This document shows, one piece after another, positions 9,408 through 16,064 of a DNA stretch of 64,000 nt. This stretch comes from Miltoncostaea oceani. Lineage in GTDB: Bacteria; Actinomycetota; Thermoleophilia; Miltoncostaeales; Miltoncostaeaceae. Made by a program: the position numbers and the translations under genes. Location of the stretch: NCBI RefSeq assembly GCF_018141545.1, contig NZ_CP064356.1:3485001-3549000 (forward strand), read 5' to 3'. The notes below the pieces were generated by a model that was given only the letters and a program-made list of their open reading frames with translations, made no database searches and was not told where the DNA came from. Numbering within the stretch: the stretch's first letter is position 1; each line of letters starts with the position of its first letter.

Positions 9408-10400
9408 ATGGACCCGGTCCTCCCGACGCCGCAGGTGCTCGTCGCCGACCCCTCGTACGGGGCCGGCCTCGATCCGGCCGAATCCGAGACCGCCGCCGTC
9501 GACGTCACGGTGGAGGGCGTCCCGTGGCGCCCGATCACCCCCGGGGGCGGCGAGGGAGGGGAGCTGGCGTTCATCGACGGCGCCCAGCAGATCGAGGCCT
9601 GGCTGACGGTCACGACGCCCGGCGACCCGCGCGCCCTGCCCGGCGCGGCGTTCGCCGTCGCCGCCGGCGCCGTCATCACCGCCCGCGGGCGCACCGCCGA
9701 CATCGTCGGGCTCCGCGTGCGCCGCGCGGTCGTGACGGTCGGCGACCGGCGGCTGCACCTGGCGCCGGTCGGCGGCTACGCGTGGGAGTCGCGCTGCGAG
9801 GCGGCGCAGGAGGCCACCGGCCTCGCCCGGCGCGTCGGCGAGGTGCGCCAGCAGCTCGAGCTCGCCCTCGCGGAGGAGATCGCCCACCGCGACCGGCTCG
9901 TCGTGCTCGACGGGCGCCTCTCGTTCATCCGCGACGCCGCCGGCCCCGTCGTCGGCGCGATCAAGAGCCACCACCGCATGTACCTCCCCCCCGAGGAGGC
10001 GCGCGTCGTCGTCGGCCTCGGCGTCGGCCAGCGCACCCCCCTCTTCGCGATCGGCGAGGACCGCCTCTCCTGGTACCAGCGCCTCCCCGGCGTCGGCGAC
10101 CACGGCTGGGCCGGGATCCTCCGCGGCGAGGTCGCCCGCTCCCTCGGCGCCCAGGAGGCCCGGCACCTCGCCGACCGCGCCGCGCGGGAGCTGCCGTACT
10201 TCGCGGGGCGGCCCCACCGCGACCCCCGCGCACCGCAGAACCTGGCGCCCGTCGCGGGCCTCGAGGCCCGCCTGCGCCACCGCATGGGCGACCGCCGCCT
10301 CGCGCTGCGGGCCGTGCGCCGGGCCGCCGCGGCCGCGCGCCTCGACGACGCGACCCGCGTGGGCGTCGCCGTCGCCGAGCCCGATCCGCTCGCGGCATGA
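9408..10400 (+). CDS. nurA: NurA-domain 5'-3' nuclease
   Basis: This 330-residue protein matches the NurA nuclease pattern: LAFIDGAQ with the first metal-binding Asp at residue 57, a second acidic site VVLDGRLSF near Asp 168, and VVGAIKSHHRMYLP. NurA resects DNA ends together with the HerA hexameric translocase. The gene overlaps the herA-like ATPase by ATGA and is followed by sbcD and sbcC, the standard archaeal partners of NurA, which strongly supports the assignment. The upstream part of the open frame lies opposite dsbA and is not coding; ATG 9408 sits at the expected leaderless position. Confidence 0.8.
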   Translation: MDPVLPTPQVLVADPSYGAGLDPAESETAAVDVTVEGVPWRPITPGGGEGGELAFIDGAQQIEAWLTVTTPGDPRALPGAAFAVAAGAVITARGRTADIVGLRVRRAVVTVGDRRLHLAPVGGYAWESRCEAAQEATGLARRVGEVRQQLELALAEEIAHRDRLVVLDGRLSFIRDAAGPVVGAIKSHHRMYLPPEEARVVVGLGVGQRTPLFAIGEDRLSWYQRLPGVGDHGWAGILRGEVARSLGAQEARHLADRAARELPYFAGRPHRDPRAPQNLAPVAGLEARLRHRMGDRRLALRAVRRAAAAARLDDATRVGVAVAEPDPLAA

Positions 10401-13341: not shown

Positions 13342-16064
13342 GGCCCCTCCAGCTCGACCTCACCGCGTTCCGCTCGTACGACCACGCCTCCGTCGACCTG
13401 CGCCCCCACGACCTCGTGGTCATCACGGGCGACACCGGGGCGGGCAAGACCTCCCTGCTCGACGCCGTCGCCTTCGCGCTGTTCGGGCGCACCCCCGAGC
13501 AGACGAAGGTGAAGGAGCTGCTGACCCTCGGCCGGGACCACGGCGAGGTCCGGCTCACGTTCCTGTCCCGCGACGAGGTGTGGCGGGTGACCCGGCGGTA
13601 CGGGAGGGACGCCCCCGAGCCGGCGCACCTGCTGGAGCGGCTCGCGGGGGACGGCGGGGCCACGGTCGAGACGATCGGGGGCGACGAGGCCGTCGCCGCG
13701 CGCCTGCGGACCGTCGTCGGCATGAGCTTCGAGGCGTTCACGAGCGCCGTGCTGCTGGCCCAGGGGCGCTTCGCCCGCTTCCTCGGGGCCGCGCCCCGGG
13801 AACGCGACGCGATCCTGCGGGAGCTGTTCGGCGTGGCGTCCCTGGAGGGCGCCCGGCAGGCGGCGCAGCGCCACGCGGCCGCCGCGACCGCCGAGGCCGA
13901 CCTCCGCGCCGCCGATGCCGCCGGGCTCACGGCCGGGACCTGGGCCGGGCGGGCGGCCGCCGCACGGGCGGCACGAGCGGCGTCCGCGGCCCACGCCGTC
14001 GCCGCGGCGCTCGGACCGCTCGCCGCCGCCGAGGCCCGCCACGCGGCCGCCGCGGCGACGGCCCGCGACCGTGCCGCGGCGGCGCGGCGGGCCGCCGACG
14101 ACCTGCCGGGCGAGGACGCCGCCCGCGAGCTGATCGGGCGGCTGCGGGGGGCCCGCGAGGGCGCCGTGTCCGCCGAGGCGGCGCGGTCGCCGCCGCCGAC
14201 GACCTCGCCGTCCGCGCACGGGCGCGCGACGAGGCCCGGGCACGCCACGGCGGGGGGCGCCGAGCTCGCCGCGCTGCGGGAACGGGCGGCGCGGGCGGCG
14301 CTGCTCGCCGCCGAGCTGCCGCAGCGGGCCCGCCGCCCTCGACGACGCCGACGCCGCCCTCACCGCGCGACGCGCCGCCCTCGAGGGGCTGCGCACGACG
14401 CTCGCGGAGGCCGTCGCGGCGCACGAGGCCGCGGCGGCGACGGCGCGGGCGCTCGGGGCGTGGGCCGCCGCGGAGCGGGGCGCCGCCGACGCGCTCGCCG
14501 CCCGCGAGGCCGCGGCACGCGACGAGGCGCGGCCGCCGCCGCGCACGCGGCGGCGGCGGAGGCGGCAGAGAGGCGGGAGGCGGCGCACGAGGCCGTCCGG
14601 CGCCACGACCTCGCGGTCACGGTGATGGCCGGCCTCGCGCCGGGCGACCCCTGCCCCGTGTGCGGCGGCGTCGTCGGGGAGCACCCGCCCGAGGTCGCGG
14701 GCCTGCGGGCCGGCGACGACGACCTCGCCCGGGCACGCACGGCGCTCGCCCGCGCGGGCGCCGCCGAGGGGGCCGCACGGGAACGCGCCCGCGCCGCGCG
14801 GAGGCCGCGGACGCGGCCGTCGCACGGCGCGACGAGGTCGCGGCGGACCTGGAGCGGGCCGGCATCGACCCCGGCGGGGAGCCGGAGGACGCGACGGCGG
14901 TCGCGCGGCGGGCGGCGGCGATCGAGGCCGCCCGCGCGGGGATCGTGCAGGAGGAGCGCGCCATCGACGCCGAGGGGGGACGGGTCGCGGCCGAACGGGA
15001 GCGGCTGGAGCGCGACCGCGACGACCTGGGATCCGCCCGTGCGGCGCTCGGGCCGTGGGGGGCGCACGCCGACCCGGCGGCGGCCCTCGGCGCGGCGATG
15101 GAGGAGGTCGGCGCGGCCGAGGCCGCCGCCGACGCCGCCGCCGGTGCCGCCGCCGCGGCCGCGGCGCGCGCGGCGCAGGCCAGGCCCAGGCCACCGCGAT
15201 CGAGGCGGCCCCCGTCGCGTCGCTCCGGGCGACCGCCGCGCGTGTCGCCGCCCAGGGCAGCCTCGCGGCGCCCGCCGACGGCCTGCCGGCGGAGGAGCTC
15301 GTCGACGCCGCCCGGGCGCTGCGGGCCGAGGCCCTCGCCGCCGCGGGACGCCACGCCGCCGCCGCGGCGGAGGCCGAGGACCGGACCGTCGCCGCAGGGA
15401 GGCCCTCGCCGCCGCGGGGCGCCCCTCGGGGTCGCCGCCGCCGCGGACCTCCCGGCGCCCTCGGCCTGGAGCGCGCGCGCGACGCCGCCCGCGGGCCCTG
15501 CGCGACGCCGAGGGCGCGGCCGCCGAGGCGCGGCGGCTGCGCGCCCTGGCGGCCGCGGCCCGGGAGGCGGCGCGGGTGCACCAGCAGGTCGCGGCCGACC
15601 TGCGGGCCAACGGCTTCCCGCGGTTCCTGCTCGGGCGCTTCCGCGAGCGCCTGGCGGTGGGGGCCTCCACGCGGCTGCAGGAGCTGAGCAGCGGCCACTA
15701 CCGCTTCGCCGGCGTCGAGCCCGACCCCCTCGCCGTCGTCGACCGGCGCCGTGGCGAGCGGACGCGACCCGCCGGGAGCCTCTCGGGGGGCGAGCGCTTC
15801 CTCGCCAGCCTCGCCCTCGCGCTCGGCCTCGGCGACATCGCGGCCGAGTCCGGCGGGCGCCTCGACTGCCTGTTCCTCGACGAGGGGTTCTCGACGCTCG
15901 ACGCCGAATCGCTCGAGCAGGCGCTGGCCGGCGTGGAGCGCCTCGCCGGCGACGGGAGGCTGATCGGCGTGATCACACACCTGCCGGGTGTCGCGGACCG
16001 ACTGGGCGCCGAGATACGAGTTGAGAAGGATCCGGGGGGTGTGAGTAGAATCGCCGGAACATGA
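13338..16064 (+). CDS. sbcC: SbcC/Rad50-type SMC ATPase, reading frame broken in the coiled coil
   Basis: Both ATPase halves lie in one frame. The N-terminal half has LTAFRSYDHASVDLRP, a P-loop GDTGAGKTSLLD (Lys 37) and the Q-loop region. The C-terminal half has SLSGGERFLASLALALGL and Walker B LFLDEGFSTLDAES. The zinc-hook CPVC is at 14652-14663. Between about 14180 and 15500 the coiled-coil signal moves between all three frames around ten times, for example near 14182, 14252, 14325, 14540, 14800 and 15185. A clean gene would give nearly the same length. There is no ATG or GTG before the conserved N-terminus, so the start is taken as CTG 13338, overlapping the sbcD stop. Confidence 0.8.
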   Translation: MRPLQLDLTAFRSYDHASVDLRPHDLVVITGDTGAGKTSLLDAVAFALFGRTPEQTKVKELLTLGRDHGEVRLTFLSRDEVWRVTRRYGRDAPEPAHLLERLAGDGGATVETIGGDEAVAARLRTVVGMSFEAFTSAVLLAQGRFARFLGAAPRERDAILRELFGVASLEGARQAAQRHAAAATAEADLRAADAAGLTAGTWAGRAAAARAARAASAAHAVAAALGPLAAAEARHAAAAATARDRAAAARRAADDLPGEDAARELIGRLRGAREGAVSAEAARSPPPTTSPSAHGRATRPGHATAGGAELAALRERAARAALLAAELPQRARRPRRRRRRPHRATRRPRGAAHDARGGRRGARGRGGDGAGARGVGRRGAGRRRRARRPRGRGTRRGAAAAAHAAAAEAAERREAAHEAVRRHDLAVTVMAGLAPGDPCPVCGGVVGEHPPEVAGLRAGDDDLARARTALARAGAAEGAARERARAARRPRTRPSHGATRSRRTWSGPASTPAGSRRTRRRSRGGRRRSRPPARGSCRRSAPSTPRGDGSRPNGSGWSATATTWDPPVRRSGRGGRTPTRRRPSARRWRRSARPRPPPTPPPVPPPRPRRARRRPGPGHRDRGGPRRVAPGDRRACRRPGQPRGARRRPAGGGARRRRPGAAGRGPRRRGTPRRRRGGGRGPDRRRREALAAAGRPSGSPPPRTSRRPRPGARARRRPRALRDAEGAAAEARRLRALAAAAREAARVHQQVAADLRANGFPRFLLGRFRERLAVGASTRLQELSSGHYRFAGVEPDPLAVVDRRRGERTRPAGSLSGGERFLASLALALGLGDIAAESGGRLDCLFLDEGFSTLDAESLEQALAGVERLAGDGRLIGVITHLPGVADRLGAEIRVEKDPGGVSRIAGT
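16021..16051 (+). promoter_or_regulatory. Promoter TTGAGA-N19-TAGAAT
   Basis: A -35-like TTGAGA (16021-16026) and a -10 TAGAAT (16046-16051) are 19 bases apart inside the end of sbcC. The -10 ends nine bases before ATG 16061, so the small membrane gene can be expressed separately from the operon. Confidence 0.5.

What the first reader, a model, noticed from the sequence alone, without database searches (positions are those of the whole stretch)
9408..16064. Archaeal-type end-resection operon nurA-herA-sbcD-sbcC in a GC-rich actinobacterium
Four genes in tight overlap encode the NurA nuclease, HerA-like translocase, and SbcD/SbcC (Mre11/Rad50). This is the set used by hyperthermophilic archaea to resect double-strand breaks. 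Most studied bacteria use RecBCD, AddAB or AdnAB. The single leaderless promoter and NTGA coupling suggest a stoichiometric machine.
Basis: partly seen in the sequence, partly recalled or inferred. Interest (0 to 1): 0.58.

Follow-up and report, generated by a model that had tools for sequence, protein, structure and literature searches.

The report
Bacterial NurA-HerA-SbcD-SbcC repair operon
This is a bacterial gene cluster for trimming broken DNA ends, built from Deinococcus-type NurA and HerA plus bacterial SbcD and SbcC; it looks like a normal, fairly common actinobacterial operon that sits alongside another end-resection system, and the SbcC gene in this assembly is frame-shifted.

Summary
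The operon is real. nurA 9408-10400 and herA 10397-12148 are the bacterial (Deinococcus-type) NurA-HerA pair: profiles match D. radiodurans HerA at E=1.6e-189 and NurA at 3e-49, and the models match the solved structures. sbcD (12151-13341) is bacterial SbcD. sbcC (13338-16064) has good ends, but its coiled coil (about 14190-15460) is out of frame 5-9 times against intact relatives. A leaderless-type promoter before nurA is supported: TACAGT occurs once in the window. 'Archaeal-type' is misleading, and a primary role by default is not supported: the genome also has a tandem AddB/AddA-like pair and RecJ, and nurA was not found in 31 of 42 genomes of its order. The cluster is common: 109 of 396 sampled genomes of the phylum carry this HerA; 40 of 45 well-covered strong loci hold all four genes; the four gene trees agree. 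Bacterial NurA-HerA and one bacterial four-gene arrangement (Oceanithermus) are already in print. Verdict: new member of a known kind; its breadth and co-inheritance are the useful part.

The parts
9396..9401 (+). TACAGT, -10-like hexamer 6 nt before the nurA ATG (leaderless-type promoter)
   Evidence: only TACAGT on either strand of the window; same place in 7 related loci, 5 TACAGT and 2 TACATT (by eye)
9408..10400 (+). nurA, NurA nuclease of bacterial (Deinococcus) type, 330 aa
   Evidence: profile to 7f6d NurA E=3e-49 and T. maritima TM1739 E=1.1e-23; 14 of 26 family members match PF09376, the window protein itself does not; model to 7f6d TM 0.68
10397..12148 (+). herA, HerA hexameric translocase of bacterial (Deinococcus) type, 583 aa; Walker A K169, Walker B D455/E456, D201
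   Evidence: profile to D. radiodurans HerA E=1.6e-189 over 571 residues or so of 583; model to 7wrw TM 0.88
12151..13341 (+). sbcD, bacterial SbcD/Mre11-like nuclease, 396 aa, GTG start
   Evidence: TIGR00619 123.8 bits against cut-off 77.65; Pfam Metallophos and SbcD_C
13338..16064 (+). sbcC, bacterial SbcC/Rad50-like ATPase, CTG start; ends and CPVC zinc-hook motif in frame, coil frame-shifted
   Evidence: TIGR00618 199 bits (below its whole-protein cut-off 478.5), AAA_23 and SbcC_Walker_B
14190..15460 (+). stretch of sbcC with 5 to 9 frame changes relative to relatives
16061..16468 (+). 135 aa hydrophobic ORF, ATGA overlap with sbcC, kept after sbcC in two other genomes of the genus; no Pfam match; membership of the operon not tested

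Best explanation
A bacterial DNA-end-processing operon. SbcC-SbcD (Rad50-Mre11) recognises and opens blocked or protein-bound ends; a HerA hexamer then pumps duplex DNA toward a NurA dimer, which cuts the strands and leaves a 3' tail for recombination. The four genes are read mainly from one leaderless promoter and are inherited as a unit. Here the operon works beside an AddAB-like helicase-nuclease and RecJ, so it is probably a second, specialised route (for instance for blocked ends) rather than the main resection engine. Shown here: gene identities, layout, promoter hexamer, conserved linkage, congruent trees, presence of the other systems. Inferred: the biochemical steps (from work on Deinococcus and archaea), co-transcription, and the division of labour. 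Open: whether SbcC is intact in the living strain.
For: D. radiodurans NurA-HerA is the closest solved relative by sequence and structure; catalytic HerA positions invariant in 26 sequences; four-gene linkage in 40 of 45 well-covered strong loci and 10 of 12 distant loci; congruent trees r 0.83-0.93; leaderless promoter; AddAB-like pair and RecJ in the same genome; archaeal four-gene cluster is co-transcribed and Mre11 binds HerA (PMC2288612 title and passages).
Against: The role of bacterial NurA-HerA is disputed: removal improved tolerance to high mitomycin C and UV in D. radiodurans, and negative effects are reported in Thermus (PMC9960219 passages). sbcC is frame-shifted in this assembly. 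nurA was not found in 31 of 42 genomes of the order. No expression or biochemical data. SbcD-SbcC in bacteria also exist without NurA-HerA (6 of 6 such loci), so joint action is inferred from linkage alone.
Confidence: 0.75

Rival explanations
1. The operon is partly dead in this strain: sbcC is truly broken by several indels, and only NurA-HerA and SbcD are made.
For: 5 to 9 frame changes against three relatives, none in five controls; another genome of the genus (G019) also shows one shift in the same gene; a separate SbcD/SbcC-like pair lies on a second contig, C2.
Against: The shifts sit in the most GC-rich 2 kb of the window (84%), where sequencing errors are expected; codon-position bias is still seen in the shifted parts; both ATPase ends are strongly conserved.
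Confidence: 0.25
2. An anti-phage or anti-plasmid nuclease system, like other HerA-based defences (SIR2-HerA, DUF4297-HerA, TdpAB).
For: Defence HerAs share the fold (query TM about 0.46-0.56); TdpAB matches the NurA model weakly (E=1e-4); PADLOC mad8 hit E=6.4e-12.
Against: By far the closest match is the Deinococcus HerA (TM 0.88); partners are SbcD-SbcC; flanking genes are a P-type ATPase, a thioredoxin-like protein and a peptidase; congruent inheritance of all four genes.
Confidence: 0.08
3. It is the organism's main resection engine.
For: In archaea NurA-HerA is essential (PMC4351679, title in search listing); two genomes of the order 95-96% complete have nurA-herA but no AddA match.
Against: AddAB-like pair and RecJ in the same genome; nurA not found in 31 of 42 genomes of the order.
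Confidence: 0.12

Closest known systems
Deinococcus radiodurans NurA-HerA (PDB 7f6d, 7wrw, 7wrx)
   Same: Same protein families over nearly full length; HerA catalytic residues kept.
   Different: There nurA-herA is described as an operon of its own and a link with sbcCD is stated as unknown (PMC9960219 and PMC4663267 passages); here sbcD-sbcC are attached.
Oceanithermus profundus nurA/hepA-sbcD-sbcC arrangement
   Same: Published bacterial case with SbcD and SbcC genes downstream of the HerA homologue (PMC5448004 section 3.1).
   Different: Other phylum; those authors propose recruitment of SbcD-SbcC in that organism, whereas the spread and congruent trees here fit an older unit. The Oceanithermus genes were not compared here.
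Archaeal herA-mre11-rad50-nurA cluster (Sulfolobus)
   Same: Same four functions clustered and co-transcribed in S. acidocaldarius (PMC2288612 passages).
   Different: Bacterial subfamilies here: published identity of archaeal and bacterial NurA-HerA is under 20%; structural matches at 12-14% identity; SbcD scores far better with bacterial than archaeal models.

Membership tests
Bacterial (Deinococcus-type) NurA-HerA | Full-length HerA of this subfamily with Walker A/B and D201 | tested here: met
   E=1.6e-189; TM 0.88; K169, D201, D455, E456 invariant in 26
Bacterial (Deinococcus-type) NurA-HerA | NurA RNase H-like nuclease next to herA with invariant acidic residues | tested here: met
   E=3e-49; TM 0.68; D57, E151, D168 invariant in 26; their catalytic role is recalled from the family, not tested
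Bacterial (Deinococcus-type) NurA-HerA | PF09376 match of the protein itself | tested here: not met
   no match for the window protein though 14 of 26 relatives match; the profile and structure results outweigh this single-sequence miss
Bacterial (Deinococcus-type) NurA-HerA | ATP-dependent end resection by a HerA hexamer and NurA dimer | not testable with these tools
   needs biochemistry
SbcCD | SbcD over TIGR00619 cut-off | tested here: met
   123.8 bits against 77.65
SbcCD | SbcC as one intact frame with both ATPase halves and zinc hook | tested here: inconclusive
   halves and CPVC present, coil frame-shifted, 199 bits under the 478.5 cut-off
Archaeal HerA-NurA-Mre11-Rad50 operon | Four functions linked | tested here: met
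Archaeal HerA-NurA-Mre11-Rad50 operon | Archaeal subfamilies of the proteins | tested here: not met
HerA-based anti-phage defence | SIR2, DUF4297 or similar effector beside herA | tested here: not met
   neighbours are nurA, sbcD, sbcC, a P-type ATPase, a thioredoxin-like gene and a peptidase

The most novel reading that the evidence does not exclude
The nurA-herA-sbcD-sbcC unit is an old bacterial operon, present early in Actinomycetota and shared with Chloroflexota, and inherited or transferred whole, so that the unlinked pairs of Thermus and Deinococcus are the remnants; the parallel with the archaeal cluster then reflects either one very old unit or strong selection to keep these four together, even in bacteria that also have AddAB.
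Probability: 0.3. Interest if true: 0.6.

Novelty: new member of a known kind. Interest (0 to 1): 0.36.

Why it matters
Papers from 2015 and 2023 call bacterial NurA-HerA rare (PMC4663267, PMC9960219 passages), while a 2021 review lists Actinobacteria among the holders (PMC8708640 passage). Here 109 of 396 sampled genomes of the phylum carry this HerA, most well-covered loci have sbcD-sbcC attached, and cultured genera such as Micromonospora are among the holders. That gives mesophilic, cultured hosts in which the disputed role of bacterial NurA-HerA, and its link with SbcCD, could be tested.

Tried and rejected
Single-sequence Pfam and NCBIfam searches did not identify NurA or HerA, and PADLOC gave only weaker HerA-type hits; 26-sequence profiles did identify them. 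PF09376 against the own genome found nothing, a false negative. Weak HerA hits in 13 of 399 class genomes (E 1e-8 to 2e-5, short coverage, mostly large ORFs) were set aside as other ATPases by that reading alone. Plain tblastn of SbcC gave many repeat-like cross-frame hits in the Ala/Arg-rich coil and was not used; the frameshift-aware alignment replaced it. AdnAB as the alternative system: the first gene of the pair has only the PDDEXK domain, so AddAB-like fits better; phmmer of that gene found no PDB chain at E<=1e-5. A phylum-wide count of AddAB against NurA-HerA was not finished: PDDEXK_1 is in 106 of 108 genomes and the row list was cut. No damage-response (LexA or PafBC type) site was searched for. 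The genus name Miltoncostaea is recalled only; one search did not settle it. That two relatives are Thermoleophilia or Actinomycetota comes from record titles L057 and L058, whose contig lengths equal those of G011:C9 and G012:C20.

Dropped before counts: of the 75 genomes with a HerA row of 300 bits or more (counted by eye), 68 were fetched; left out were G000, G011, G012, G014 and G019 (already held; searches show their operon) and G622 and G687 (fragments at contig edges). Of 32 distant-type genomes of one family, 10 were fetched; the 12 'distant' loci also hold G649 and the second HerA of G532. G503 was not fetched. One search used a hand-picked 78 four-gene loci plus 6 sbcD loci without nurA-herA. 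In one search the missing sixth control is G020 against itself; G020, G009, G012 served as queries.
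Full report
Observation. Four + strand genes lie at 9408-16064. nurA (9408-10400) and herA (10397-12148) overlap by ATGA; sbcD starts with GTG at 12151, two bases after the herA stop; sbcC begins with CTG overlapping the sbcD stop. A small hydrophobic ORF (16061-16468) overlaps the sbcC stop.

Identity. Alone, the NurA and HerA sequences miss Pfam, and NCBIfam gives HerA only two sub-threshold type VII secretion hits. Profiles from 26 sequences then hit D. radiodurans HerA at E=1.6e-189 and NurA at E=3e-49. AlphaFold2 models (mean pLDDT 87.6 and 89.4) match the same structures best (HerA TM 0.88, NurA TM 0.68), with archaeal and defence HerA further off. The HerA residues that align with D. 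radiodurans K175, D220, D487 and E488 are K169, D201, D455 and E456, invariant in 26 sequences. SbcD is bacterial SbcD.

SbcC. Codon-position GC changes class several times between about 14200 and 15500. A frameshift-aware alignment to the SbcC of G020, G009 and G012 needs 9, 8 and 5 shifts for the window and 1 each time for G019, but 0 in five control comparisons (G010 against three, G020 against two). GC there is 84%, the peak of the window. Sequencing error is the likelier cause, but a truly broken gene is not excluded; I put the latter at 0.25.

Promoter. TACAGT at 9396 is unique in the window; TANNNT is rare (0.00024 per position and strand), and 12 such sites lie 5-8 nt before the start of an ORF of 150 aa or more. 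The place is kept in seven related loci, five with TACAGT and two with TACATT (read by eye). A leaderless nurA transcript is therefore likely, though not shown.

Spread. A nurA match is found in 11 of 42 genomes of the order, all of one family. In the class, 29 of 399 genomes match HerA at E<=0.001, 16 of them strongly, counted from the rows. In the phylum sample, 109 of 396 match at E<=1e-20; from the rows, 75 have a match of 300 bits or more, 32 are a distant type from one family, and 2 are others. Among 68 strong loci fetched, 59 have sbcD downstream on the same strand within 8 kb; of the nine others, seven stretches end within 5.5 kb of herA. Of the 45 with at least 6 kb downstream and 1.5 kb upstream, 43 have sbcD, 42 sbcC, 41 nurA and 40 all four. 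Of 12 distant loci, 10 have all four. Of the 80 named loci, 76 have sbcD and 70 nurA, counted; the three without sbcD despite flank (L095, L097, L098) hold nurA-herA only, and two of them are titled Eremiobacterota. Two gene orders occur: nurA first (window clade, most Acidimicrobiia, Chloroflexota loci) or nurA last (Micromonosporaceae, one genus of the window's family, some Acidimicrobiales).

Inheritance. Trees of the four proteins for 78 loci correlate at r = 0.83-0.93 for all gene pairs, against permutation maxima of at most 0.121. Members of the window's own family fall into separate places (window clade; L019; L021 with L177) in much the same way for all four genes, which suggests that the unit moves or is inherited together. 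No neutral marker tree was made, so common descent is not separated from functional coupling. Three relatives without nurA-herA (L172, L173, L174) have SbcD close to the window clade, consistent with loss of nurA-herA there or gain in the window's line.

Other systems. The chromosome has a 1203 aa protein with only a C-terminal PDDEXK domain, followed by a UvrD-PDDEXK protein that scores best with AddA, though below that model's whole-protein cut-off: an AddAB-like pair. A further UvrD-PDDEXK protein (L053) and RecJ over its cut-off are also present. AddA-like matches occur in 7 of 42 genomes of the order, five of them with nurA; six nurA-bearing genomes lack a match, two of these 95-96% complete. 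So the systems neither replace nor require each other in this sample.

Literature. Searches. Seen: passages of PMC9960219, PMC2288612, PMC8708640, PMC4663267 and PMC5448004, and section 3.1 of the last. Bacterial NurA-HerA, its presence in Actinobacteria, and hepA with sbcD-sbcC downstream in Oceanithermus are in print. Searches listed no paper whose title or abstract start describes the actinobacterial four-gene operon, but most subscription papers are not held (two tried), so this is weak evidence of novelty.

Mechanism. By established work on the families: SbcCD opens ends; HerA pumps duplex DNA into NurA; a 3' tail results. In this organism I judge it a second route beside AddAB. The role remains disputed even in Deinococcus, where removal improved tolerance to some damage.

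Noticed in passing
L176 (G000:C2:506000-519000): A second contig of 816 kb carries a separate SbcD-like (380 aa) and SbcC-like (767 aa) pair, with a partial RecJ-like match nearby, a sigma-70 region 2 protein and an N6-methylase-like protein.
   Followed up: partly
L284-L290, L292-L294: A distant HerA type (about 100-120 bits) in 32 of 396 genomes, all of one family f23, also sits with nurA-like, sbcD-like and often sbcC-like genes; in most, the pieces match weakly.
   Followed up: partly
L283 (G532:C15): One genome carries two HerA loci; the second, divergent one (274.6 bits) has its own nurA-sbcD-sbcC neighbours.
   Followed up: no
L012:13387-16127: sbcC of the other one-contig genome of the genus (G019) has one frame change in the coil, so the gene is shifted in both near-complete assemblies of the genus.
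   Followed up: partly
window:4770-9286: A P-type ATPase frame and a divergent thioredoxin/DsbA-like gene lie upstream of nurA and are kept there in other genomes of the genus.
   Followed up: no
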